Program-made: the position numbers and the translations under genes
Part shown: in pieces, positions 31,482 to 43,212 of the stretch
Position numbering within the stretch: the stretch's first letter is position 1
Layout: each line of letters opens with the position of its first letter
Assembly (NCBI RefSeq): GCF_035658495.1
Contig: NZ_CP141945.1
Coordinates: forward strand, 62,001 to 126,000
Direction: 5' to 3'
Length of the DNA stretch: 64,000 bases
DNA from: Novosphingobium sp. RL4
GTDB lineage: Bacteria; Pseudomonadota; Alphaproteobacteria; Sphingomonadales; Sphingomonadaceae
Notes under the pieces: generated by a model
Told to the model about the DNA's origin: nothing
What the model saw: only the letters and a program-made list of their open reading frames with translations
Databases searched by the model: none

Positions 31482-31500
31482 ATTGCGATTGGTTCGCAAT
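31482..31500. promoter_or_regulatory. Fur-box-like palindrome upstream of heme locus
   Basis: The 19-bp sequence ATTGCGATTGGTTCGCAAT has perfect 7-bp arms and a 5-bp spacer. Its 17-bp core agrees with the TTGCGAAT-N-ATTCGCAA form I associate with alphaproteobacterial Fur sites except in the three central positions near the spacer. It ends 25 bp before the sigma-factor start, where it could block the promoter when iron is plentiful. Confidence 0.6.
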
Positions 31501-31525
31501 AAGTGATCTGCTATCCGTCCCGGCC

Positions 31526-32065
31526 ATGGATCGAGCAGACAGGGAAAACGGAGCATCGTCCGATGGCGAACTGCTGCGCGTCTTCCTGGCGCAGCGTTCC
31601 GAACTCGTCCGTTATACCGCGAACATCGTTGGGGACCGGGCCGGGGCGGAAGACATCGTCCAGGAGGCCTGGCTGCGTTTCAATGCTGCGGCGAAGAAGC
31701 AGCTTATCGGCGAACCTCGGGGATTCCTGTTCCGCATCGCCCGTAACCTTGCGCTCGATGGCCGGCGCCGCCGCAGCTTCGAGCAGAAGCTGTTCAGCGG
31801 CGACGACAGCGGCGTGGCCGAACTGATTGCAAGCGACGAGCCTTCCGCACAGACCCGGCTGGAGGCGATGGATGAGCTTTCGATCATTCGCACGGCCATG
31901 GACGCCCTGCCGGAGCGGACGCGGCTGGCGTTCACCATGCACCGGTTCGAGGGCGCGCGCCTGATCGACATCGCGGAGCGGCTCGGCATTTCCAGGAGCC
32001 TGGCGCAGGAACTCGTGGTGGATGGTCTGGAGCGCTGCCGCAAGGCTTTGCGGCGGCGGCCATGA
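31526..32065 (+). CDS. ECF RNA polymerase sigma factor, FecI type
   Basis: 179 residues. Region 2 is LVRYTANIVGDRAGAEDIVQEAWLRFNAA and RGFLFRIARNLALDGRRRR; region 4 is MDALPERTRLAFTMHRFEGARLIDIAERLGISRSLAQELVVDGLERCRKAL. FecI-type factors are activated by FecR when a TonB receptor binds its ligand. It is followed by the FecR gene after 63 bp and by the STN-domain receptor, the standard cell-surface signalling trio. The start ATG is immediately downstream of the Fur-box-like palindrome, suggesting iron-starvation control of the system. Confidence 0.93.
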   Translation: MDRADRENGASSDGELLRVFLAQRSELVRYTANIVGDRAGAEDIVQEAWLRFNAAAKKQLIGEPRGFLFRIARNLALDGRRRRSFEQKLFSGDDSGVAELIASDEPSAQTRLEAMDELSIIRTAMDALPERTRLAFTMHRFEGARLIDIAERLGISRSLAQELVVDGLERCRKALRRRP

Positions 32066-32128
32066 CGATACCTGCATTTTTATCCGGATTCCCGGCGGCG
32101 TCGTTCGTCTCAATCATGTGGAGTCTCG

Positions 32129-33124
32129 TTGGCGACAGGAAATGCGGCAAGACCCGTGATGAATGACGAAGTGGATATGGGCGCGGTCGAGCGAATGGCA
32201 TCGACCTGGCTGGTTCGTCTCGATGACGATCCGGAGGACGCCGGATTGCGCGCGGAATTCGAGCAGTGGCTCGATGCCAGCCCTGAGCATCGCCGGGTAT
32301 GGGCGGAAACGCGGGATCTCGATCTCCTGCTTGAGGCTGCAAGGCCGGTGGATGCCGTAGCGCTGCCTTCCGGGAATGTCGTTCCGTTGAAGTTTCGCCG
32401 CAAGGCGCGGGGCAAATGGCGTGTGTTTGTGCCGCTCGCGGTAGCGGCCTGCCTTGGGCTGGTTCTGGCGGCCGACATTCCGGTCTGGATGCAGGCGCAG
32501 GATATCGCGCGCACCGGAGAGGTTCACAAGGTGGCCTTGCAGGACGGCAGCACCGCCTGGCTCGCGCCCGGCGCTGCGATGGCATTCTCGATGGACGCAG
32601 AGGGCCGGCGCCTGAAACTTCTGCGCGGAAAGGGCTATTTCGACGTGGCCCACGATCCTGCCCATCCCTTCCGCGTGGAGGCCGGAGACGGGGCGGTGAA
32701 GGTTCTCGGCACCGCGTTCGAGGCAGGGTTCAACGAGCAGGGCATGGCGGTTTCCGTTCGGCGGGGGCTTGTGGAGGTTTCCTATCCCAAGGGCCGGGTG
32801 CGAGACCGGCTGCGCCCCGGACAATCGATCGCGGTGCCCTGGGCCGGAAGCCCTTCGCGCGGCCAGGTCCGGCCGGACCGGATCGCGGCGTGGATGAACG
32901 GCCGCCTTCTGGTCAACGATCGCCCGGTAAGGGACGTGCTCGAAGCGCTGCGTCCCTGGTACGGGGGCTATATCGTCGCCCGAGGGCCGGGGCTCGACAC
33001 GCGGCGGGTAACGGGCATTTACGATCTGCGCCATCCGGATGCAGCGCTGGAGGCGCTTGCAAGAGCCCACACCATCGCCGTGCGCGACATTACGCCATGG
33101 CTGAGGATCGTCACGGTAGAGTGA
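32129..33124 (+). CDS. FecR family anti-sigma/sigma-regulator protein
   Basis: 331 residues from a TTG start with a GGAG five bases upstream (an ATG lies 30 bp downstream at 32159 with a poorer site). The N-terminal cytoplasmic DUF4880-like part (STWLVRLDDDPEDAGLRAEFEQWLDASPEHRRVWAETRDL) should bind the sigma factor. One membrane helix follows (about residues 103-122, FVPLAVAACLGLVLAADI), then a periplasmic FecR domain (VHKVALQDGSTAWLAPGAAM, GYFDVAHDPAHPFRVEAGDGAVKVLGTAFEA). It relays the ligand-bound state of the STN receptor to the ECF sigma factor. Confidence 0.92.
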   Translation: MATGNAARPVMNDEVDMGAVERMASTWLVRLDDDPEDAGLRAEFEQWLDASPEHRRVWAETRDLDLLLEAARPVDAVALPSGNVVPLKFRRKARGKWRVFVPLAVAACLGLVLAADIPVWMQAQDIARTGEVHKVALQDGSTAWLAPGAAMAFSMDAEGRRLKLLRGKGYFDVAHDPAHPFRVEAGDGAVKVLGTAFEAGFNEQGMAVSVRRGLVEVSYPKGRVRDRLRPGQSIAVPWAGSPSRGQVRPDRIAAWMNGRLLVNDRPVRDVLEALRPWYGGYIVARGPGLDTRRVTGIYDLRHPDAALEALARAHTIAVRDITPWLRIVTVE

Positions 33125-33217
33125 GCCGGGGGATGACCGGCGGGCGCTGAAAAGGCTGCTTTTCCATGCAGTTTCCCTTAGCCTTCAATTAATTCACCGC
33201 TCACTGCATTTTTTTCC

Positions 33218-33241
33218 GGAATTTCCTGAGCCTCGCCCGTC
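33218..33241 (+). promoter_or_regulatory. Candidate ECF-sigma promoter for the heme receptor operon
   Basis: GGAAT (33218-33222) and CGTC (33238-33241) are spaced by 15 bp, matching the general -35/-10 pattern of ECF promoters. They lie 66 bp before the receptor start in a 183-bp gap that is otherwise free of genes. Confidence 0.4.
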
Positions 33242-33307
33242 GTTAGGATATGCGACTGACTTGCATTAGCATTTAGTCGCCCGTTTGACGAATGGGGGAT
33301 TTTGACG

Positions 33308-36300
33308 GTGATTGCGGGGGTGAAGTTTTGCGGGATGGGGCGGCGCGGTGCCTGGGCGGGGGCGCTTCTGGCGTCGGTATCCGCAGGAGGACTGGCTTTT
33401 CCCGCTGTGGCCGCAGCGCAGGCCAGCACAAGCGGCGAAGCACGGGCGTTCAGCATTCCGGCGCAGTCCCTGGCCGATGCGCTGACGGATTTCGGAGAGC
33501 AGTCCGGCCTGCAGGTCAGCGTCAATGCGGATGATGTGCGCGGCCGTTCGACCGGCGGCGTGAGCGGCCGCATGGCTCCGGCGCTGGCGCTGGGGCGCCT
33601 GCTGGCGGGCACCGGCCTCGGTTATCGCATCGAAGGCAGCGTGGTCAGCCTCTCGAAACTGCCTGCCGCATCCGACGGAAGCGTCCAGCTCGGCCCGCTG
33701 CGGGTCGAAGGCAGCGTGAGCAACGCGGCGGAGACCGGCGGCGAGCGCGATACCCGGCAGCGCGATGCAGTCTACGATCAGGATATCTCTTCGACTTATG
33801 CGGGCAAGGAGGAGGTCGAACGCTACAAGGGCGTGAATACCGCCGACGTGCTGAAGGGCATGGTCAATGTCTTCAGCGGCGATGCCCGTAACGGCGGCGC
33901 GCTCGACCCCAGCATTCGCGGCATCCAGGGGCCGGGCCGCGTGCCCGTGCTGATCGACGGAACCGAGCAGGCGTTGACGGTCTGGCGCGGATACAACGGC
34001 GCCAGCAATCGCAGTTACATCGATCCCAGCCTGATCTCGGGCGTGCAGGTGCTCAAGGGGCCGGTTTCCACCCGCGGGGTCAACGGATCGACCGGCGGTG
34101 CCGTGGTCATCAACACGCTCGACGCCAGCGACATCCTCAAGCCCGGGCAGAGCTTCGGCGTGGAGATGCGGCTGGAAGGCGGCAACAACTCCACCGATCC
34201 GCGCCTGCCGACGCTGCTGACCGGGCAGGACTATCGCGATATTCCCGGCTTCGTCGGCTCCGGTGTGGGCGCTTCGCCGACCTATCCCTATGCGGACCCT
34301 TCGTTGCGGGTGAACCTGAAGGGCAGCGACGACAACGAATTCGTCTCGTTCGGCGATCGTGCCGCGCGGCTGGCCGTGGCGGGGCGCGTGGGAGACTTCG
34401 AACTGTTCGGTGCTTACGCCTACCGCGAGCGCGGCAATTACTTTTCGGGCAAGACGGGGGCCGGTTATTACCAGCAGGAAGACCTGCCGCTGAACGCCGA
34501 TACTTATGTGCGGAAGCTGGGCCTCAATTACGAACCCGGCAACGAGGTTCCCAATACCTCGAGCGAGCTGGAATCGTGGCTGCTGAAGGCGACCTGGAAG
34601 ATCGCCGACGATCAGGCTCTCCAGATCGGTTTTCGCGACAGTCGCTCGAAGTTCGGCGAGATCATGCCATCGCGGATCATGACCGCCGGAGGCGGCTATT
34701 TCGGCAATATCCAGTGGCCGCTCAGCAAGGTCCATGCACAGGCCTGGAACGGGGAGTACAAGTGGGACCCGGATAGCCGCCTGATCGATTTCAAGGCCAA
34801 TCTCTGGGCGACCCATACCGTTGGCGATACCTACAGCGCGGGTGGCTTTCCCAATGCCGCTTCGGAGGCGGACCCGATCATCACCAATACGGCGCTCTCC
34901 AACTCGCGGAACAACCGCTATGGTCTGACCGCCAGCAACCAGTTCGAACTGACCTCGACGCTGGACCTGCTGATGGAGGGAAGCTGGCAGCACGAGAAGC
35001 TGCGTTCGGACGACGAATATTCGGAGGCGATGGCCAACGGCTGGCGTCAGTTGCCGCGTGCGGGACGGCGCGAGGAATATCGCCTCAGCCTCAAGGGCGA
35101 ATGGCGCCCCGCGCAATTCCTGAAGTTCAATGCCGGACTGACCTATTCGGGATATTGGGCGAAGGACGATTTCCTGCCCAAGTATCTCGAACTGCAGGGC
35201 GGTTCGATCTCGCAGTATGTCACGCCCTCGTGGAAGACCACTTATGAAACGGAGGAATCCGGCGCCGCCGCGTGGGAAGCCTATCGCAGGGCCTATTGGA
35301 CCGGGCTGAACATGCCGCAATCGGTGATCGACATCATCCTGCCGATCGAGATCGCCAGCTACGCGGCCAATCCCTATACTTTCGTCGTCAGTCACGACGG
35401 GCCGGACTGGACCCCGGACGCCTCGGGCAACTTCCACCGCGCGGGCAATTTCTGCCTGAACGGTTCGACCGACAGCATCGCCGGCTTCGTGGCGGGCCGC
35501 TGTGTGGTCAGCGCCCAGAACGAACGGGTCGCGATAACGCAGGCCAAGCGCAAGTCGGGCAGCGGCTGGGCGCCGACGCTTTCGGCCACCGCTTACATCA
35601 GCAGCGCCAGCCGGGCCTATCTGCGCTATGCCGAGGCCTATCGCTTCCCCAGCATGTTCGAGAGCACGATCGGCTTTTCAGCCTCGATCAACCCCTCGCG
35701 CGATCTGAAGCCCGAGCGCATCCGTTCGTGGGAAGCGGCCTGGATACAGGACCTGCGCCCGCTGTTCGGCCTGAACGACGGCCAGTACGCCGATCTCAAG
35801 CTGACCTGGTATCACAACACCACCCGCGACGTGATCGAGCGCGACATCCACCTGATGTTCAGCAATCTCGACAAGCAGGTGATCGCCGGCTTCGAGCTTC
35901 AGGCGCGGTATGACAACGGGCGCTTCTTCACCGATCTGAGCGCCGGCCATATGACGACCAATAAGGTTTGCGACGAGAGCCAGGCGGCGACCATGGACCC
36001 GAGCCGGGGCCGGGTGCCCGACTGCGTGAAGTACGGCTTCATCGCCGGTTTCCTGCTCACGCAGGCCACGCCCGAGGATACGGTGAACTGGACGGTGGGC
36101 GGCCGTTTCCTCGACCGTCGGCTCGAACTGGGCGGCAGGGTCACCTGGTATGCGGGCTACGACAACCCGCAACTGGCCGAATTCACCAACGAGGCGGACT
36201 GCATCGGCGGCTGCGCGCTCAATATCCCGTACACCTGGGGAGAGATCGTGACCCTGGATGCCTTCGCGAAGTTCCGCATCAACGACCGGTTCAGCGCCGA

Positions 36301-36409
36301 GCTGACCGGCCTCAACCTCAACAACCGCTATTACCTCGACCCGCTGTCGCGTTCGTTGCTGCCCGCACCGGGACGCACCGTGAAGCTCAGCGTGACCGGC
36401 CGGTTCTGA
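33308..36409 (+). CDS. TonB-dependent outer-membrane receptor with STN signalling domain (putative heme/hemophilin receptor)
   Basis: 1033 residues from a GTG start with GGGGGA seven bases upstream; a TTG two codons earlier is too close to that site. A signal peptide ends near VAAAQA. Next is an STN domain (FSIPAQSLADALTDFGEQSGLQVSVNADDV, about residues 45-110), then plug (GKEEVERYKGVNTADVLKGMVNVFSGDARN, SIRGIQGPGRVPVLIDGTEQ) and a 22-strand barrel ending KLSVTGRF. The STN domain, upstream FecI/FecR and downstream hemophore-like, Slam, heme-oxygenase and TonB genes indicate a heme or hemophore receptor that signals its own induction. Ligand identity is inferred from context, not from conserved His motifs. 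Confidence 0.9.
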   Translation: MIAGVKFCGMGRRGAWAGALLASVSAGGLAFPAVAAAQASTSGEARAFSIPAQSLADALTDFGEQSGLQVSVNADDVRGRSTGGVSGRMAPALALGRLLAGTGLGYRIEGSVVSLSKLPAASDGSVQLGPLRVEGSVSNAAETGGERDTRQRDAVYDQDISSTYAGKEEVERYKGVNTADVLKGMVNVFSGDARNGGALDPSIRGIQGPGRVPVLIDGTEQALTVWRGYNGASNRSYIDPSLISGVQVLKGPVSTRGVNGSTGGAVVINTLDASDILKPGQSFGVEMRLEGGNNSTDPRLPTLLTGQDYRDIPGFVGSGVGASPTYPYADPSLRVNLKGSDDNEFVSFGDRAARLAVAGRVGDFELFGAYAYRERGNYFSGKTGAGYYQQEDLPLNADTYVRKLGLNYEPGNEVPNTSSELESWLLKATWKIADDQALQIGFRDSRSKFGEIMPSRIMTAGGGYFGNIQWPLSKVHAQAWNGEYKWDPDSRLIDFKANLWATHTVGDTYSAGGFPNAASEADPIITNTALSNSRNNRYGLTASNQFELTSTLDLLMEGSWQHEKLRSDDEYSEAMANGWRQLPRAGRREEYRLSLKGEWRPAQFLKFNAGLTYSGYWAKDDFLPKYLELQGGSISQYVTPSWKTTYETEESGAAAWEAYRRAYWTGLNMPQSVIDIILPIEIASYAANPYTFVVSHDGPDWTPDASGNFHRAGNFCLNGSTDSIAGFVAGRCVVSAQNERVAITQAKRKSGSGWAPTLSATAYISSASRAYLRYAEAYRFPSMFESTIGFSASINPSRDLKPERIRSWEAAWIQDLRPLFGLNDGQYADLKLTWYHNTTRDVIERDIHLMFSNLDKQVIAGFELQARYDNGRFFTDLSAGHMTTNKVCDESQAATMDPSRGRVPDCVKYGFIAGFLLTQATPEDTVNWTVGGRFLDRRLELGGRVTWYAGYDNPQLAEFTNEADCIGGCALNIPYTWGEIVTLDAFAKFRINDRFSAELTGLNLNNRYYLDPLSRSLLPAPGRTVKLSVTGRF

Positions 36410-36428
36410 GGAGAATTTCAGGACCGCC

Positions 36429-36465
36429 GCCGGTGCCCTTGATCCTGACAGAGCAGGGCACCGGC
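36429..36465 (+). other. Intercistronic hairpin 1 (receptor-hemophore gap)
   Basis: Perfect 10-bp stem GCCGGTGCCC/GGGCACCGGC with a 17-nt loop, 19 bp after the receptor stop. No U-run follows, so it is more likely an mRNA-stability or partial-termination element than a full terminator. Confidence 0.65.
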
Positions 36466-36482
36466 GACGATCCTGGATCAAC

Positions 36483-36502
36483 GCGCCCGAACGATCGGGC
36501 GC
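36483..36502 (+). other. Intercistronic hairpin 2, next to hemophore ribosome-binding site
   Basis: Perfect 8-bp stem GCGCCCGA/TCGGGCGC with an ACGA tetraloop. It ends about 9 bases before the AGGAG of the hemophilin-like gene and may protect the 5' end of a processed hemophore mRNA or affect its translation. Confidence 0.65.
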
Positions 36503-36523
36503 ACCAACTGCAGGAGAAGTAGA

Positions 36524-37297
36524 ATGAAGTCTGCCTATCTCAAAGCAATTGCTGCCGCCTTCACCCTTTCGACCGCGCTGGCCGGTACTGCCCAGGCGCA
36601 AGTGGTCGGTGCATCGAGCGACACGGCGAAAGTGAAGATCGCCGCCAGCACGGTCAGCGGCGGACCTCACGTGGCCGGACGCGTGGGCATCAACGTGCCG
36701 AGCCTGACCAGCGTGCAGTACGTCGATTTCCAGGGCCTTCAGGCCTATGCCGCAGCTGATGCCAACGGCGTGACCTCGGTTGCGCAAGTCACCGGCACCG
36801 TCACCGACCACAGCAAGTACGGCCGTTTCGACTTTGCCAAGGTCGGCACGCAGGATGTCTACTTCGGCGAATGGTCGCAGACCGGCAGCGCCACCGCCGG
36901 CGATCACACCGTCTACTACGGCGGCACCGGCCAGACCAGCGCAGTGCCCAACAGCGGCGCCGCCAGCTACTCGGTCAAGGGCATCAGCGACTATGCCAAC
37001 AAGGGCATCCTGACCGGCACCTTCAACGCGACGTTCACGGGCGGCGGCACCGGCATTCTCACCGGCAGCCTGAGCAATGCATCGGGAAGCTACGGCGTCA
37101 ACATCGGTACGGCGGGCATCAGCGGAGGCGCCTTCTCCGGCACTACCGCCACGGCTACCAGCGGCACCACCACGGTCGCCACGAACGGCGCCGTCAGCGG
37201 CAGCTTCTTCGGCACCAATGCCGATGCGCTGGCCGGGATCGTCAACTTTGCGTCGGCCCGCCAGTACAACACCGCGTTCGGCGGCACCAAGAACTGA
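36524..37297 (+). CDS. Secreted hemophilin-like heme-binding protein (Slam substrate)
   Basis: 257 residues. Signal peptide 1-25 (ALAGTAQA | Q) with no lipobox cysteine, so a soluble secreted product rather than a lipoprotein; no cysteine anywhere. The N-terminal half (about 26-150) should be the ligand-binding part and contains the only three histidines, H49, H96 and H128, candidates for heme coordination. The C-terminal half is a small Gly/Thr/Ser-rich beta-barrel whose end, GSFFGTNADALAGIVNF, matches the G-x-FFG-x-x-A-x-x-L-x-G signature of TbpB-like Slam-client barrels. It lies between an STN TonB receptor and a Slam gene, as in Acinetobacter hemophilin clusters. Heme binding is inferred. 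Confidence 0.8.
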   Translation: MKSAYLKAIAAAFTLSTALAGTAQAQVVGASSDTAKVKIAASTVSGGPHVAGRVGINVPSLTSVQYVDFQGLQAYAAADANGVTSVAQVTGTVTDHSKYGRFDFAKVGTQDVYFGEWSQTGSATAGDHTVYYGGTGQTSAVPNSGAASYSVKGISDYANKGILTGTFNATFTGGGTGILTGSLSNASGSYGVNIGTAGISGGAFSGTTATATSGTTTVATNGAVSGSFFGTNADALAGIVNFASARQYNTAFGGTKN

Positions 37298-37373
37298 TCC
37301 GAGCGTGAAATCGGGATCGGGCGCCGCCGTGCGTCCGGTCCCACCACGCGCGAACGGGATAGACACGATCCTC

Positions 37374-38864
37374 ATGGCCGCCTTTCGCAAGTACCTGCTG
37401 CTGCTCTGTGCGGGCATGCCGCTCGGAACCCCCCCGGCAGTGGCACAGAGCGGAAGCGGGCAGGACACGCGCCTGCGCCTGGACCAGCAGATCGACCGGC
37501 AGCAAGCCCAGCGCGACGCCGAAGCGCGGGAGGATGCCGAAGCACTGGACGAAGTGCCCTCTTCAATGGTGATCGACGGCGAGACCTATGCGGTCGGCAA
37601 CAATGCCAGCGACCTCGGGCAGGCGCTCTACATTTCCGTCTCTCGCAAGCAATGGCGCGACGTGCGCCGTTTTCTGGCGGCCTACCGCAAGCTGGAAGAT
37701 CGCGATCCGATGCTGGAGCTTTACGCTCTCGGCGCGCTTGCCCGCAGCGAGGGCAAACTGGCGCAGGCGGAACGCGATTACCGTGCGCTGCTGGACCTCA
37801 AGCCGGATTTCCTGCCCGGGCAGCTCGAACTGGCGCGGACGCTGTTCGAGAACCGCAAGGACCGGGAGGCCGCCCGCATCTTCCGCGCCGCGCGGCTTCA
37901 GGTGGCCGGGGGCGGGCCGCAGGGCGAAGGAGTGCTGCGCTCGATCGACGCTTTCCTCTCCGCATTGAAGACGCGGCAGGGCTGGCAGGGCAGCCTGGCG
38001 CTTGGGCCGGGCTACAGCACCAATCTCAACCAGTCCTCGGCAAGCTATACCTGCCTGCTCGCCGCCGATGACGGCACCTGCCTGATCGATCGCAAGGTGC
38101 CGGATGCGATCGCCTCCACCGGGATCAACATCGAGGGAACGCTCAGCCGCCGTATCGCGCTTGGCGGGCATGGCGGGCTGCGGGCAAGGGTGATGCTGTT
38201 CGGGGACATCTATCCCGAGCATCACGCCTATTCGCAAACCACCGCGATCATGCGGCTCGGCTACGATTACCAGACGGCGCGAGACGGTGTGGCCATCTCG
38301 CCCTCCTTCGATCTGGGGACGTTCGGTTCCTCGATCCTCTACACGGCCTGGGGCGTGAATGCGGAGTGGACGCATACCCTTTCTCCGCGCGCGCTGTTCA
38401 AGCTGGAGGGCAACTACCGCCGGTTCGACTATGCCCTGGCCGGCTACGACACGCAGGACGGCGGGCTGGCCGATCTGTTCCTCACCGGCTGGTATACCCT
38501 GCCGCACGGCTGGACCCTGCTGGGCGGGCCTGATGCGCTCGACAAATCGGCGGGCGATCCCGTCGATGCCTATCGCCAGCTGGGTGCGCGCCTCGGTGTG
38601 GCGAAATCCTTCGGCAGTGCCGCCAGCCTGCTCCTGCTCGGCTCCGCGAGGGAGCGCCGCTACCGGGCCTACAGCGAACTTTTCGAAGCGAAGCGCCGGG
38701 ACCGGGAGCAGGTCTATACCGCAATCCTGCGCGTGCCGGCGCTCAGGCTGGCGGGGCTCGTGCCCGAGGCGCTGGTCCAGCACAACCGGGTGAAGAGCAA
38801 TATCGACTGGCTCTATTCCTACCGGCGCACGACCGTCAGCCTCCGGCTTAGCCGCTCCTTCTGA
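37374..38864 (+). CDS. Slam-family outer-membrane translocon (surface lipoprotein assembly modifier, DUF560)
   Basis: 496 residues. A signal peptide (FRKYLLLLCAGMPLGTPPAVAQ) is followed by a periplasmic TPR-like helical region (about 90-200: LYISVSRKQWRDVRRFLAAYRKLEDRDPMLELYALGALARSEGKLAQAERDYRALLDLKPDFLPGQLELARTLFENRKDREAARIFRAA, given here as its boundary motifs LYISVSRKQWRD and RKDREAARIFRAA). The rest is a C-terminal beta-barrel starting GSLALGPGYSTNLNQSS and ending TVSLRLSRSF. This architecture is that of Slam proteins, which move TbpB-like and hemophilin-like clients across the outer membrane. Its direct neighbour is the probable client. ATG 37374 is preferred since the signal peptide begins there. 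Confidence 0.88.
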   Translation: MAAFRKYLLLLCAGMPLGTPPAVAQSGSGQDTRLRLDQQIDRQQAQRDAEAREDAEALDEVPSSMVIDGETYAVGNNASDLGQALYISVSRKQWRDVRRFLAAYRKLEDRDPMLELYALGALARSEGKLAQAERDYRALLDLKPDFLPGQLELARTLFENRKDREAARIFRAARLQVAGGGPQGEGVLRSIDAFLSALKTRQGWQGSLALGPGYSTNLNQSSASYTCLLAADDGTCLIDRKVPDAIASTGINIEGTLSRRIALGGHGGLRARVMLFGDIYPEHHAYSQTTAIMRLGYDYQTARDGVAISPSFDLGTFGSSILYTAWGVNAEWTHTLSPRALFKLEGNYRRFDYALAGYDTQDGGLADLFLTGWYTLPHGWTLLGGPDALDKSAGDPVDAYRQLGARLGVAKSFGSAASLLLLGSARERRYRAYSELFEAKRRDREQVYTAILRVPALRLAGLVPEALVQHNRVKSNIDWLYSYRRTTVSLRLSRSF

Positions 38865-38891
38865 AACCGATCCCCGAAAAAGGAGAATTCG

Positions 38892-39491
38892 ATGACCATG
38901 ACCACCGATACCGTTCCCCTTCCGCTCTCGAAGCGTCTCAAGGCGGAAACCGAAAGCGTTCACGAGGCGCTGGACAAGCGCATCATGTCTGCCGATCCTT
39001 TCGCGGACCGTGAGCGCTACGGGCGCTTCGTTGCCGTTCAGTACCTGTTCCACCGCGATATCGATGCGCTTTACGAGCAGCCCGCGCTGGCCGCCTTGCT
39101 CCCCGATCTTGCCGACCGCCGTCGACTGCCGCTGATTGCGTTCGATCTCGCCGATCTCGGCCTTGCGGTTCCCGAGGCGAGCGCGGCGCCGGCCTTCGGC
39201 GCAGGCGCGGACATTCCCACGGCGCTGGGCTGGCTCTATGTTGCGGAAGGCTCAAACCTGGGGGCGGCGTTCCTGTTCAAGGCGGCGGCGGCACTGGGTC
39301 TGGACGAGAATAGCGGCGCGCGCCACCTCGCCGGTCATCCCGAGGGCCGCGCCCGGCACTGGCGCAGCTTTACTGCCGCACTGGACGCGGCGGCGCTTTC
39401 CCCGGCAGAGCAGGCCCGCGCGCGCGCCGGAGCGGAAGCGGCATTCCTGCGGGTGAGGGGGCTCGTCGAGGATCATCTCGCCCGTGCCTGA
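38892..39491 (+). CDS. hemO: Biliverdin-producing heme oxygenase
   Basis: 199-residue bacterial heme oxygenase, the usual length. The proximal heme ligand is His24 in ETESVHEALDKRIM, and the distal-helix region is LGWLYVAEGSNLGAAFLFKAAAALGL with the glycine-rich kink. The enzyme opens imported heme to biliverdin, CO and Fe(II). The strong AAAAAGGAGAATTCG ribosome-binding site directly precedes the ATG. It follows Slam by 27 bp and overlaps tonB by 8 bp, so heme degradation is co-expressed with uptake. Phytochrome-linked BphO proteins are similar, but no phytochrome gene is present and the context is heme import. Confidence 0.92.
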   Translation: MTMTTDTVPLPLSKRLKAETESVHEALDKRIMSADPFADRERYGRFVAVQYLFHRDIDALYEQPALAALLPDLADRRRLPLIAFDLADLGLAVPEASAAPAFGAGADIPTALGWLYVAEGSNLGAAFLFKAAAALGLDENSGARHLAGHPEGRARHWRSFTAALDAAALSPAEQARARAGAEAAFLRVRGLVEDHLARA

Positions 39492-40182
39492 TTTAAAGGC
39501 AGGCCAGACAGGTTACGCACCGGCCCGCAATCCGGCTGCATTCGGGCTGAGCGTGGCGCTGCATCTGGCTGTTGCCGGGGCCATGCTGGTGGTCTGGCGG
39601 GAGGCGCCGAGGATACTGTCCGCCTCCACGCCTGCGCTCACGGTCAATCTCGTACCGCTTGCGGCGCCCGACCCGGTCCGCGATGTCGCGCCCGGGCCGG
39701 AGCAGGTCGAGAGGCAGGAGGAACGGGTGGAGGTCCAGGCCGAGGAAGCGCCCGCATTCACGCTGCAGAAGGTTTCCATCCAGCCTCGGGAGGAGCGGCA
39801 GGAAGTGGCCGAGCCGGTCGATCCCGGCCCGCCGATACCGGAAACGACCGCACCGAAAAGCATCCAGGCGCCGCCTGCGCCGCGGCTTTCGAACATGGCC
39901 GAGCCGGACTGGGAAGCCCGGCTTCTTGCGCATCTTGAACGGTTCCGCCGCTATCCGGCGCGCGCCCGCTCGGCGCGGCAGCAGGGGACCGTTCTGGTGC
40001 GCTTCAAGGTTACGCGCGGCGGGCAGGTTCTTGCTGCCGTCATCCAGCGCAGTTCTGGCTTTTCGGGACTGGATCAGGCGGCGCTCGAAACCTTTGGGCG
40101 CGCGCAGCCGCTGCCCCGTCTTCCCGAAGACCGGCCTGACCCGCTGGAACTGACGGTTCCTGTGGAATTCTACTTGCGCTGA
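39484..40182 (+). CDS. tonB: TonB energy-transducing protein dedicated to heme locus
   Basis: 232 residues from a GTG start overlapping hemO by 8 bp. One N-terminal membrane helix (FGLSVALHLAVAGAMLVVW, about 20-38) is followed by a periplasmic Pro/Glu-rich linker (about 55-135) and a C-terminal TonB domain (about 145-232: YPARARSARQQGTVLVRFKVTRGGQVLAAVIQRSSG to PVEFYLR). It should couple proton-motive force to the receptor at 33.3 kb. ExbB/ExbD are not in the window and must be supplied elsewhere. It ends the operon 7 bp before a strong terminator. Confidence 0.93.
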   Translation: MPDLKAGQTGYAPARNPAAFGLSVALHLAVAGAMLVVWREAPRILSASTPALTVNLVPLAAPDPVRDVAPGPEQVERQEERVEVQAEEAPAFTLQKVSIQPREERQEVAEPVDPGPPIPETTAPKSIQAPPAPRLSNMAEPDWEARLLAHLERFRRYPARARSARQQGTVLVRFKVTRGGQVLAAVIQRSSGFSGLDQAALETFGRAQPLPRLPEDRPDPLELTVPVEFYLR

Positions 40183-40188
40183 AAAGAG

Positions 40189-40219
40189 AAGGGCCGGGCG
40201 CTCCCCGCGCCCGGCCCTT
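40189..40219. terminator. Bidirectional intrinsic terminator of heme locus
   Basis: Perfect 12-bp GC-rich stem AAGGGCCGGGCG/CGCCCGGCCCTT with a 7-nt loop between convergent tonB and the next TonB-receptor gene. The A-rich left flank and TTCCTT right flank fit termination in both directions. Confidence 0.88.
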
Positions 40220-40245
40220 CCTTCGTAGTTGAATGAAGACCGCGA

Positions 40246-42756
40246 TCAGAACGTGATCTTGGTCTGGATACCGGCCGTGCGCAGTTCCGGCAGGCCCAGC
40301 ATGAGCGCGGAATAGCGCGCGGTGTAGCTGAACGTCGGGTTGAACACGAAGTTGTCCGATACCGAGATCGGCGTGTGGTTGTTGAACAGGTTGTTGACGA
40401 AGGCCTCCACCGTGATCTGGCCGTGAGTGATGCCGGCACGCACATTGAAGAGGTGCAGGTCCGGCGTCTTCGCGAGGTTGGCCTCGTTCGACCATTGACC
40501 GGACTTGAAGTTCCAGTCGCCGCGCACGAACCAGCGGCCTTCGTCCCAACCGGCGATCTCGGTGCCCAGCGTCACGCCGACGTTGGCCGAATACTTGGAG
40601 GTGTTCTTCATCTCCTTGCCGGAGAAATCGTAGATGCCCGTCAGCGCGCTGATGGTGGTGCTGGTGAACTTCTGGATGTCGGTTTCGTTGACCGCGCCGG
40701 CCGCATCGATGGTGATGAAGTCGGTCGGCCGCCAGGAAACCTCGCCCTCGACACCGTAGAGATCGACGTCGCCCGAGTTGGCCGAGGTGTTGACGAAGCT
40801 GAACCCGGTAGCCTGCGTGGAATCGGGCGCGACGATGGTCACCGCGTTGATCTGGTCGCGCCACTGGGCGTAGTAGGCCGCCAGGCTGTAGCGCAGGTTG
40901 CCGCCCAGCGCCTTGCCCTTGAGACCCAGTTCGTAGTTGGTGATCTTCTCCGGCTTGATCGAGAGCTGGCCGCCCGCATCGAGCGCGGCCTGCTGCACGG
41001 TTGCCGCGTTGGACAGGATCGAGGTGTTGAACTGGGCGGGATTCACGCCCTTCGACCACGAAGCGTAGACCATCATGTCGGGCGAGATCTGCCAGTTGAT
41101 GATCGCACGCGGCGTGAAGTTCTTGTAGGTAGCGCTGGCCAGCAGCGAACCGCCTTCGTAGAACCCGGCCGGGATGAAGGCGCTGGAGGCCACGGTGAGC
41201 CCCGATGCGGTGGCGAAGGCCTGCAACTTGTCGATCTGGTAGCGACCTTCGACACTGGCCGAGATGGTGTCGGTCAGGTCATAGGTCAGGCCGAAGAAGA
41301 AGCCGGTCGTCTTGTTGCGGCTGAGACCGCCGGGGAACATCGACGCGGTGAGCAGGGAGCCGGTACTGCCGCCGTTGCCCTGGATCTGGTCGGCGCTGAG
41401 GTAGCTGACACCGGCGACGCCGCGGAACGGCCCCTTGGTGTAGGACAGGCGCCCTTCGAGCGAGAAGTCCTCGATCTTGCGCTCGATCAGGTAGGGATAG
41501 TCGAAGTAGCCCTTTCCGTAGTTCGCGGGCGGATCGTAGGAGTCGTTGCTGAAGGCGCGGGTATCGTAGCCGTCGAGGTCGATCAGCGTGGTCCAGACCT
41601 CGCGGTTGTAACCGGCGAGGGCGGAAGCGGTAAGGTTGTCTGTCAGGTCCACGTCGATGGTGCCGTGGACGTGGCGGGTCTTGCGCAGCAGGCCGTAGCC
41701 CGAGACGGTATCGTCAGGCGAGACGACGCGGCCGCGCGTGCTGGCCAGGAACTGGCGCACCTGGTCGGTATTCTCGACGTTGGCCGTGACGGGGTTCGCG
41801 ATCGTCGGGATCGTGCCGCAGAAATAGGGATTGCTGACTGCGGTGCCGATCGGCTGGCCCGTGGTGGGATCGAGCACGCCGCGCGTATCGCCGGTCAGGG
41901 TGCAGTTCGACTGGCCCTGAAGCACGACGCTGCCGTTGGGGGCGGTGACGGTATAGGCGCTGAGGCGGGTCTGTGCCGCCGGGCCGTCCTTGTCCTCGCC
42001 CATCATGCCGAAGAGCTTGATGGTGACGGAGGAGGAGGGGGTGATCGCCAGCATCGCGGTGCCGACGGTGGAGGACTGGTCGCCCAGCGTGCTGCCGTCG
42101 TAGTTCTTCCACGAGCCGCTCTTCGACCACTTCTCGCCGGTGACGCGGAAGGAAATCAGGTCCTCGATGATCGGCCCTTCGACAGAGCCCTGCAGGCGCC
42201 AGTTGTCGCGCGTGCCGACCATGCCGAGGATCTGGCCGCCCCAGTCGTTGCCGGGCACCTTGTTCACGACGTTGATGGCGCCTGCAAACGTGTTGCGGCC
42301 GAAGTAGGCGCTTTGCGGGCCCTTGAGGATTTCGATGCGCTCGGGATTGCTGATCGCGCCGACCTGCGAGGGTGACGAGACAGGCACGCCGTCGATGAAG
42401 GTCGAAACCGTGGTCGCCAGCGTCGTCGACGGCGTGAAGCCGCGCAGCACGACCTGCTGGAACGAGCGATCCGCATGGCCCGAGGAGCTGTTGTTGATGT
42501 TGATGCCGGGCGTCGAGTTGGCGACATCCACCATCGAGACGATGCCCTTGGCTTCGAGCGTCTCGGACGTGATCGCCGTCACCGTAACCGGCACCTTGAG
42601 GATGTCCTCGCCGGTCTTGCGCGCGGTGACGACGATGTCGCCACTGGTGTTTTCGGGAGCTTCGGCCATGGCCGGTGCCGACCATGTCATACCGGCGACG
42701 AGCGCCAGGGTTGATAGCGTGGAAGCGAGACGGATGGTGTGAGAATTGCCAGTCAT
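40246..42756 (-). CDS. TonB-dependent receptor (no STN domain)
   Basis: 836 residues from an ATG preceded by GAGGGAAA. A signal peptide ends near APAMA; the TonB box region reads DIVVTARKTGEDI. The plug includes VANSTPGININNSSSG, VLRGFTPST, IDGVPVSSPSQVG and ERIEILKGPQSAYFGRNTFAGAINVV; the barrel ends TAGIQTKITF. It is the sphingomonad type used for oligosaccharides, aromatic or siderophore ligands. It lacks an STN domain and signalling partners. The nearest leftward genes encode the isochorismatase/LeuCD operon, 456 bp upstream, so it may import that pathway's substrate, but no link is proven. Confidence 0.92.
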   Translation of the reverse strand: MTGNSHTIRLASTLSTLALVAGMTWSAPAMAEAPENTSGDIVVTARKTGEDILKVPVTVTAITSETLEAKGIVSMVDVANSTPGININNSSSGHADRSFQQVVLRGFTPSTTLATTVSTFIDGVPVSSPSQVGAISNPERIEILKGPQSAYFGRNTFAGAINVVNKVPGNDWGGQILGMVGTRDNWRLQGSVEGPIIEDLISFRVTGEKWSKSGSWKNYDGSTLGDQSSTVGTAMLAITPSSSVTIKLFGMMGEDKDGPAAQTRLSAYTVTAPNGSVVLQGQSNCTLTGDTRGVLDPTTGQPIGTAVSNPYFCGTIPTIANPVTANVENTDQVRQFLASTRGRVVSPDDTVSGYGLLRKTRHVHGTIDVDLTDNLTASALAGYNREVWTTLIDLDGYDTRAFSNDSYDPPANYGKGYFDYPYLIERKIEDFSLEGRLSYTKGPFRGVAGVSYLSADQIQGNGGSTGSLLTASMFPGGLSRNKTTGFFFGLTYDLTDTISASVEGRYQIDKLQAFATASGLTVASSAFIPAGFYEGGSLLASATYKNFTPRAIINWQISPDMMVYASWSKGVNPAQFNTSILSNAATVQQAALDAGGQLSIKPEKITNYELGLKGKALGGNLRYSLAAYYAQWRDQINAVTIVAPDSTQATGFSFVNTSANSGDVDLYGVEGEVSWRPTDFITIDAAGAVNETDIQKFTSTTISALTGIYDFSGKEMKNTSKYSANVGVTLGTEIAGWDEGRWFVRGDWNFKSGQWSNEANLAKTPDLHLFNVRAGITHGQITVEAFVNNLFNNHTPISVSDNFVFNPTFSYTARYSALMLGLPELRTAGIQTKITF

Positions 42757-43212
42757 GTTTTCCCTCAATGCTGATCGAAAGGACACGCAAGGGCGCATCG
42801 CTTCAAATTGAGTCCCTGCTGCTTGAACACTTTGTTCTTGCAAGGCGTCAGGATCGCGCTTCAGCGCTTGTCTCCGGATGTTCGCCCGATTTTTTCTTCA
42901 GATTGTATTCTGGTTGTTTTTACGTGTTCTTGGGGTGTTGTTTGGCGGTCCCGATATTTGTCCGGGTTGTCGCCATGATTGCTTCTTCCCTCTTTTTGTC
43001 TTGCGTCCCGATCGAGCGGGCCGCTGCTTTTTTGTCAGTGATAGATTTACTTGAGTCTCGTCAGAATGACGGCGAATCTGGTGCGTATTCGCCTGTCGGA
43101 TGAGCGTGCGCGGCGCTCGCGGCCGGCCCATGCGCTGCGAACCCGCGCGGGCTGGGCCCGGCGGGTTCGGCATGTGATCGTGCTGGGAATGCGCCTTTTC
43201 AGGCGCGCCGAT
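42757..43212. other. 456-bp gene-free gap rich in inverted repeats
   Basis: No convincing gene on either strand: the longest frames are low-complexity and lack ribosome-binding sites or family motifs. The receptor-proximal part (42,890-43,010) is unusually T-rich on the plus strand. The other part holds three perfect inverted repeats: 43071-43093 (GGCGAAT/ATTCGCC, 9-nt loop), 43139-43168 (GAACCCGC/GCGGGTTC enclosing CGGGC/GCCCG, giving about 13 bp with one bulge) and 43191-43206 (GCGCCT/AGGCGC, TTTC loop). The last lies 7 bp beyond the isochorismatase stop and may be its terminator. The first may be an operator. Confidence 0.6.

What the first reader, a model, noticed from the sequence alone, without database searches (positions are those of the whole stretch)
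31482..40219. Complete FecI/FecR-controlled hemophilin-Slam-heme oxygenase locus in a sphingomonad-like chromosome
Seen: in order, a Fur-box-like palindrome, ECF sigma, FecR, STN-domain TonB receptor, small secreted barrel protein, Slam-type TPR-barrel translocon, heme oxygenase, dedicated TonB and a bidirectional terminator. Established: Slam proteins translocate hemophilin/TbpB-like clients, and an Acinetobacter hemophilin cluster has the same gene classes. Inference: an alphaproteobacterial heme-scavenging machine in which a secreted hemophore feeds a signalling receptor, with heme opened by the encoded oxygenase. Slam-hemophore systems are known mainly from gammaproteobacteria and Neisseria, so a full operon here would widen their range.
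Basis: partly seen in the sequence, partly recalled or inferred. Interest (0 to 1): 0.85.

Follow-up and report, generated by a model that had tools for sequence, protein, structure and literature searches.

The report
Slam-secreted hemophore heme-uptake cassette
A sphingomonad bacterium carries a complete, compact gene set that appears to secrete a heme-grabbing protein, sense and import the captured heme and break it open for iron; it is a relative of a system already known from the pathogen Acinetobacter baumannii.

The parts
31483..31499 (.). Fur-box-like palindrome TTGCGATTGGTTCGCAA, 26 bp before the ECF start
   Evidence: Strict form TTGCGA-N4-TTCGCAA occurs 5 times in the held genome, reversed-pattern control 0; all 5 lie just upstream of an ECF sigma + FecR pair. 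Within 4 mismatches of the window's own site upstream of the ECF gene in 19 of 36 loci. That Fur is the binder is inference.
31526..32065 (+). FecI-type ECF sigma factor (179 aa)
   Evidence: Sigma70_r2 2.3e-12, Sigma70_r4_2 2.2e-09
32129..33124 (+). FecR-type anti-sigma/sensor (331 aa)
   Evidence: FecR 2.4e-15, DUF4880 1.2e-12; start codon uncertain
33218..33241 (+). Putative ECF-sigma promoter GGAATT-N14-CGTC before the receptor gene
   Evidence: G[GA]AA[AT][ATC]-N14-CGT[CT] in 24 of 36 loci (24 of 26 alphaproteobacterial, 0 of 10 gammaproteobacterial); at most 3 of 36 at any other spacing 8-24; shuffles mean 0.4, max 3. Pattern chosen after reading; some loci are near-copies.
33250..33266 (.). 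Second Fur-like box ATGCGACTGACTTGCAT just after the putative -10 element
   Evidence: Read from the upstream regions; 6 mismatches to the ECF-upstream box, which is within the reach of shuffles; weak on its own, similar sites stand at the same place in many of the loci by eye
33308..36409 (+). HphR-like TonB-dependent receptor with N-terminal STN signalling domain
   Evidence: Plug 1.6e-14, STN 7e-09; NCBIfam TonB-hemin 1.1e-68, under that model's curated cut-off; start inferred from homologues
36524..37297 (+). Hemophilin HphA, 257 aa, signal peptide by inspection, no cysteine
37374..38864 (+). Slam / type 11 secretion outer-membrane protein (HsmA-like), 496 aa
   Evidence: SlipAM 2.8e-30, TPR_Slam 3.3e-24; AF2 pLDDT 85.7, helices 78-202 then 14 strands of 11 or more residues in 205-495
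38892..39491 (+). Heme oxygenase, 199 aa
   Evidence: PF01126 1.5e-24; phmmer 1.5e-45 to pa-HO (1sk7) and 3.2e-42 to HemO/heme oxygenase 1 (1j77)
39484..40182 (+). TonB in the same operon, 232 aa
   Evidence: TonB_C 3.8e-17
40184..40223 (.). GC-rich hairpin between the operon and the convergent receptor gene 40246-42843(-); likely terminator
   Evidence: -35.3 kcal/mol, z -6.1, 0 of 200 shuffles as stable

Best explanation
This is a complete hemophilin (HphA)-Slam heme-acquisition operon under FecI/FecR cell-surface signalling, an alphaproteobacterial counterpart of the A. baumannii hemO cluster. When iron is scarce, Fur (inferred) leaves the palindrome before the ECF gene and the sigma/FecR pair is made. 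HphA is exported by Sec, crosses the outer membrane through the adjacent Slam and takes up heme by bis-histidine coordination (H49, H96). It delivers heme to the STN receptor, which the encoded TonB energises. The occupied receptor signals through FecR to the sigma factor, which transcribes hphR-hphA-slam-hemO-tonB from the GGAATT-N14-CGTC site. Imported heme is opened by the oxygenase to release iron. Shown here: gene identities, predicted folds, conserved ligands, gene order, motifs, co-occurrence. Inferred: heme binding, secretion, induction, promoter use, Fur binding.
Against: I found no expression, heme-binding or secretion data for this organism. The genome shows a single FecCD permease, inside what reads by eye as a BtuB/BtuF/BtuC/BtuD cluster, so the inner-membrane heme step is unassigned. 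Two further heme oxygenases on C2, one in a second FecI/FecR heme locus, make the system possibly redundant. Three Pseudomonas loci with ECF/FecR gave no STN hit with my profile (L064 in Pfam 0.0029, under cut-off). The promoter pattern was picked after inspection and is absent from 2 of 26 alpha and all 10 gamma loci. 12 of 17 FecR matches of the genome lack the strict palindrome. One close homologue, P0007, has Gln for the second histidine. In the 11-row alignment the first histidine of A. baumannii does not fall in the same column as H49.
Confidence: 0.86

Rival explanations
1. Hemophilin uptake operon without true signalling: ECF/FecR and STN are carried along, and the operon is simply Fur-controlled, like the Xenorhabdus/Photorhabdus loci in which no ECF, FecR or STN was found.
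For: 32 loci plus one truncated contig here have HphA and Slam without a detected ECF, and HrpC of X. nematophila is secreted by its Slam (PMC8406197, passages). A second Fur-like box lies by the receptor promoter.
Against: STN and ECF occur together in 33 of 36 loci across alpha- and gammaproteobacteria, and a motif before hphR is conserved at fixed spacing.
Confidence: 0.1
2. The barrel protein scavenges something other than heme, such as another tetrapyrrole or a cobalt compound; a cobalt-linked Slam cargo (CrpC) is known.
For: PMC12282271 (passages and section 15) lists a cobalt receptor protein CrpC among cargo.
Against: The heme-ligating histidines are conserved in 70 of 71 rows each, a heme oxygenase gene is in 30 of 36 ECF-type loci, and the closest solved folds are holo-HphA structures.
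Confidence: 0.03
3. The locus mainly detoxifies or recycles heme rather than scavenging it from outside.
For: The genome has three heme oxygenase genes.
Against: A predicted secreted hemophore, a Slam, an STN-TonB receptor and a Fur-like box point to acquisition under iron limitation.
Confidence: 0.02

Closest known systems
Acinetobacter baumannii hemO cluster (ECF sigma, anti-sigma, HphR, HphA, HsmA, TonB, HemO)
   Same: Same seven gene classes, same order for the first five, STN receptor, both heme-ligating histidines
   Different: HemO and TonB swapped relative to the window (10 of 26 alpha loci have the A. baumannii order); A. baumannii has an extra downstream hypothetical/DUF454 gene; HphA about 34-40% identical
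Hemophilins of Stenotrophomonas maltophilia, Vibrio harveyi, Haemophilus (8gmm, 8gm3, 8glo, 6om5)
   Different: H. haemolyticus hemophilin uses one histidine (PMC8560813, passage); here two are conserved. The operons of these species were not examined.
Xenorhabdus Hrp locus (HrpA/B/C, TonB)
   Same: Hemophilin, Slam, TonB receptor, TonB
   Different: No ECF, FecR, STN or heme oxygenase was found in the Morganellaceae stretches fetched
Serratia Has operon hasI-hasS-hasR-hasA-hasDE-hasB
   Same: Same logic and order: sigma, anti-sigma, receptor, hemophore, hemophore exporter, dedicated TonB, with Fur sites (PMC9249621 passages)
   Different: Other hemophore (HasA) and exporter (HasDE versus Slam); no oxygenase in the operon as listed there. 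Works alike; not a member.
Slam/TXISS subcluster 1C of Sphingomonadaceae
   Same: DUF560/SlipAM proteins largely from environmental Sphingomonadaceae (PMC8406197, passage)
   Different: Whether this Slam falls in 1B or 1C was not tested; the passages and section read do not describe this operon

Membership tests
Hemophilin (HphA) | HphA_N heme-binding and HphA_C domains | tested here: met
   PF22828 2.7e-37 and PF22829 4e-29, both over cut-off
Hemophilin (HphA) | N-terminal clamp plus C-terminal 8-strand barrel fold | tested here: met
Hemophilin (HphA) | Two histidine heme ligands of A. baumannii HphA | tested here: met
   H49 and H96 share columns with them and stand in 70 of 71 rows each; in the 11-row alignment only the second shares a column; P0007 has Gln at the second
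Hemophilin (HphA) | Heme binding and transfer to the receptor | not testable with these tools
   needs purified protein
Slam / type 11 secretion OMP | DUF560/SlipAM barrel with N-terminal Slam TPR | tested here: met
   106.3 bits (cut-off 22) and 85.8 bits (cut-off 35.2); 14 long strands after TPR helices in the model
Slam / type 11 secretion OMP | Cargo with TbpB-like barrel encoded next door | tested here: met
   HphA is the adjacent gene, with HphA_C over cut-off; TbpB_B_D itself 8.2e-05, 23.6 bits, under its cut-off of 26
Slam / type 11 secretion OMP | Translocates the cargo | not testable with these tools
   needs a secretion assay
FecI/FecR cell-surface signalling | ECF sigma, FecR and STN-bearing receptor together | tested here: met
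   STN in 33 of 36 loci with ECF, 0 of 33 without
FecI/FecR cell-surface signalling | Sigma-dependent transcription induced by the substrate | not testable with these tools
   conserved promoter-like motif only
HemO-type heme oxygenase | PF01126 domain and closeness to bacterial HemO | tested here: met
   1.5e-45 to pa-HO, 3.2e-42 to 1j77
Has hemophore system | HasA hemophore and HasDE exporter | tested here: not met
   hemophore is of the HphA family and fold, exporter is a Slam

The most novel reading that the evidence does not exclude
A hemophilin can act as part of the extracellular signal of a FecI/FecR surface-signalling circuit: an independent re-invention of the Has regulatory logic around an unrelated hemophore and an unrelated secretion machine, spread among sphingomonads and other proteobacteria as a compact transferable cassette with its own sigma-specific promoter.
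Probability: 0.4. Interest if true: 0.55.

Novelty: new member of a known kind. Interest (0 to 1): 0.38.

Why it matters
The seven experimentally verified Slam systems counted in PMC12282271 (abstract, in the listing) all come from an animal-associated cluster. The same operon layout in sphingomonads, found in 2 of 298 same-family genomes sampled and without shared flanks, suggests a wider, patchily held and possibly transferable heme-scavenging unit. The conserved promoter-like motif and the palindrome-ECF link give a direct way to test whether a hemophilin also signals.

Tried and rejected
Categorically new system: rejected, since A. baumannii hemO matches gene by gene. Chance gene order: rejected by conservation. 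A genome-wide regulon of the promoter motif: not supported; CCGGAAWT-N14-CGTY occurs 8 times in the genome against 2 for the reversed pattern, and what the other 7 precede was not examined. A heme ABC permease: one FecCD match only, read from its neighbours as a cobalamin cluster (names by eye, no family scan). 16S to judge the replicon: no match in either contig although the controls ring; masking is my guess. The Foldseek search of the Slam model gave cellulose and exopolysaccharide exporters, OmpG, FadL and porins, TM-scores by query length 0.24-0.39 in the 50 rows shown: uninformative beyond 'helical repeats plus barrel'. The heme oxygenase lacks the Asn19/Lys132 pair that I recall as setting delta cleavage in pa-HO (alignment; residue roles recalled), so alpha-biliverdin is a guess only. 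The two J Bacteriol 2024 papers on hemophilin prevalence and diversification were not held, so alphaproteobacterial hemophilins may already be described there.

Rows dropped: trees used 50 of 71 HphA, 49 of 70 Slam and 49 of 71 HphR rows (21 related Morganellaceae left out; L034 also left out of the HphR tree). The motif count used 36 loci: L034 (truncated), L079 and L080 were not in it, and the upstream stretches of L008 and L036 were re-cut by hand because FecR was not found or the spacer was long. The flank comparison left out L023.
Full report
WHAT IS THERE. The window (G000:C2:62001-126000; C2 is 1,820,724 b and C1 3,625,401 b) carries seven co-directional genes from 31526 to 40182. Pfam gives each at least one family over its curated cut-off: ECF sigma, FecR/DUF4880, STN-Plug receptor (its barrel model did not ring), HphA_N/HphA_C, SlipAM/TPR_Slam, heme oxygenase, TonB_C. 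NCBIfam calls the 36524 protein 'Slam-dependent surface lipoprotein', although it has a Sec-type signal peptide by inspection and no cysteine. A GC-rich hairpin follows at 40184-40223.

RELATIVES. Of 251 homologues the best 120 were listed; where a source names the organism it is a sphingomonad, and 18 of the 120 are named 'Slam-dependent surface lipoprotein'. A scan of GTDB genomes with two conserved peptide patterns gave 67 loci: 24 from sphingomonads and Erythrobacteraceae, the others from Luteibacter and a Lysobacterales MAG, Halopseudomonas, Pseudomonas, Marinomonas, Neisseriaceae, Xenorhabdus and Photorhabdus; members without these peptides, Acinetobacter included, were missed. Gene content was read with profiles grown from the window's own proteins. 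With the window and L008 there are 26 alphaproteobacterial loci. ECF, FecR, STN receptor and HphA stand together in 25; in L008 the FecR profile did not ring. Slam is followed by HemO-TonB in 14 and TonB-HemO in 10; of the other two, L012 has a split HphA frame in the listing and L023 is a contig end. In the Xenorhabdus, Photorhabdus and Neisseriaceae stretches no ECF, FecR, STN or HemO was found. STN was found in 33 of 36 loci with ECF and 0 of 33 without (one of the 33, L034, is a truncated contig); the three exceptions are Pseudomonas. Pfam on 8 receptors agrees, A. baumannii having STN. These loci are related, so independent events are few.

FREQUENCY AND MOVEMENT. PF22828 rings in 2 of 298 genomes of the same family and 1 of 385 of the class, the window's own genome counted in both. 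tblastx (E 1e-20) of window 15001-56000 against 25 other alphaproteobacterial loci with mostly 10-kb flanks covers 7.0-8.7 kb of the operon in 24 of them, with only scattered matches outside (the longest 1.4 kb, L021); the 25th, Novosphingobium sp. ST904 (L012), is colinear over its 20.8 kb and about 98.9% identical over the operon (8753 identities, 94 mismatches, 8 gaps). The unit therefore looks like a discrete cassette; no mobile-element ends were sought. Trees: alphaproteobacterial Slams lie on one side of a branch (100/99) and, with three Luteibacter, on one side of another (100/100); the Lysobacterales MAG L034 lies outside. In the HphA tree support is weak (45/83) and L008 falls outside the Luteibacter branch with weak support; in a quick HphR tree SH-aLRT is 100. 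The trees are unrooted, so direction of transfer is open.

REGULATION. Upstream of hphR, G[GA]AA[AT][ATC]-N14-CGT[CT] is in 24 of 36 ECF-type loci (24 of 26 alpha, 0 of 10 gamma); at any other spacing from 8 to 24 in at most 3 of 36, on the other strand in 1 at spacing 14 and at most 5 at any; shuffles mean 0.4, maximum 3. The pattern was set after looking and some loci are near-copies, so spacing specificity is the better control. Upstream of the ECF gene, the palindrome of the window recurs within 4 mismatches in 19 of 36 loci (17 of 26 alpha), 8 of them exact, counting the window and its near-copy L012; shuffled stretches averaged 6.6-7.3 mismatches with single shuffles down to 3, and the template is the window's own site. 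In the genome the strict form occurs 5 times, control 0. All 5 lie just before an ECF sigma gene followed by FecR, as Pfam confirms (the start in L085 was set at the Met at 1478); 12 of the 17 FecR matches of the genome lack it. A Sphingobium Fur binds Fur boxes before iron-uptake genes (PMC7376174, passages); that paper's box sequence was not visible, so the Fur assignment is inference.

MECHANISM AND COMPARISON. The A. baumannii cluster (L079; table in PMC10483418, passages) is the direct counterpart; there HphA is secreted by its Slam and heme uptake depends on HphR (PMC8560813 abstract). The order sigma, anti-sigma, receptor, hemophore, exporter, TonB also equals that of the Serratia Has operon, where heme at the receptor in the presence of the hemophore induces transcription (PMC9249621, passages), but hemophore and exporter are of other families. 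I propose the same logic here: acquisition plus signalling. Open point: inner-membrane heme transfer. The one FecCD permease sits in a cluster that reads as cobalamin uptake; PMC9249621 notes that E. coli uses a dipeptide permease for heme.

NOVELTY. Slams largely of environmental Sphingomonadaceae form subcluster 1C in PMC8406197 (passages and section 6); PMC12282271 (passages and section 15) lists hemophilin-like and 'Sphingomonas surface' cargo. Searches for hemophilin with sphingom* gave 2 papers, with Novosphingobium 0; 226 papers held at least two of hemophilin, anti-sigma, FecR, FecI and cell-surface signaling, and the 20 listed had no hemophilin. These cover open-licence papers and that spelling only ('haemophilin' was not searched), and two 2024 hemophilin papers were not held. 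Verdict: confirmed, a new member of a known kind, with regulatory and evolutionary detail that I did not meet in the passages read.

Noticed in passing
L011 8001-11564 (-), G000:C2 about 563,000-566,563: A second FecI/FecR heme locus (ECF, FecR, receptor, HemO, TonB; no HphA or Slam found) whose 1187-aa STN receptor carries an extra C-terminal outer-membrane barrel domain (PF13505, residues 921-1142): a two-barrel receptor. A search with that region gave 83 proteins, many of about 1130-1230 aa with the same domains, some named as Novosphingobium, Brevundimonas, Asticcacaulis or Ancylobacter, and five of 1567-1847 aa with further barrel-type Pfam names, which may overlap.
   Followed up: partly
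L010 4213-9184 (-), G000:C1 about 3,059,000-3,064,000: A second Slam (PF04575) with two neighbouring putative lipoproteins (lipobox by eye); the 341-aa one has TbpB_B_D, the 875-aa one (not scanned) proline-threonine repeats, like the 'Sphingomonas surface protein' cargo of PMC12282271.
   Followed up: partly
L009 13194-16090 (+), G000:C2 about 443,000-446,000: A third heme oxygenase beside a TonB receptor without an STN match.
   Followed up: partly
L081, L083, L084, L085: The strict palindrome TTGCGA-N4-TTCGCAA stands before 5 ECF-FecR pairs and has no other exact copy in the held genome; 12 further FecR matches lack it.
   Followed up: yes
L012 10001-10769: Novosphingobium sp. ST904 HphA is split by single-base deletions relative to the window; sequencing error or decay not decided.
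   Followed up: no
L057, L059, L060, L074, L078: Xenorhabdus loci with a second HphA-Slam pair a few kb upstream of the first.
   Followed up: no
window 40246-42843 (-): Convergent TonB-dependent receptor next to the operon, best NCBIfam match siderophore type but under that cut-off; not shared as a neighbour by 24 of the 25 other loci compared.
   Followed up: partly
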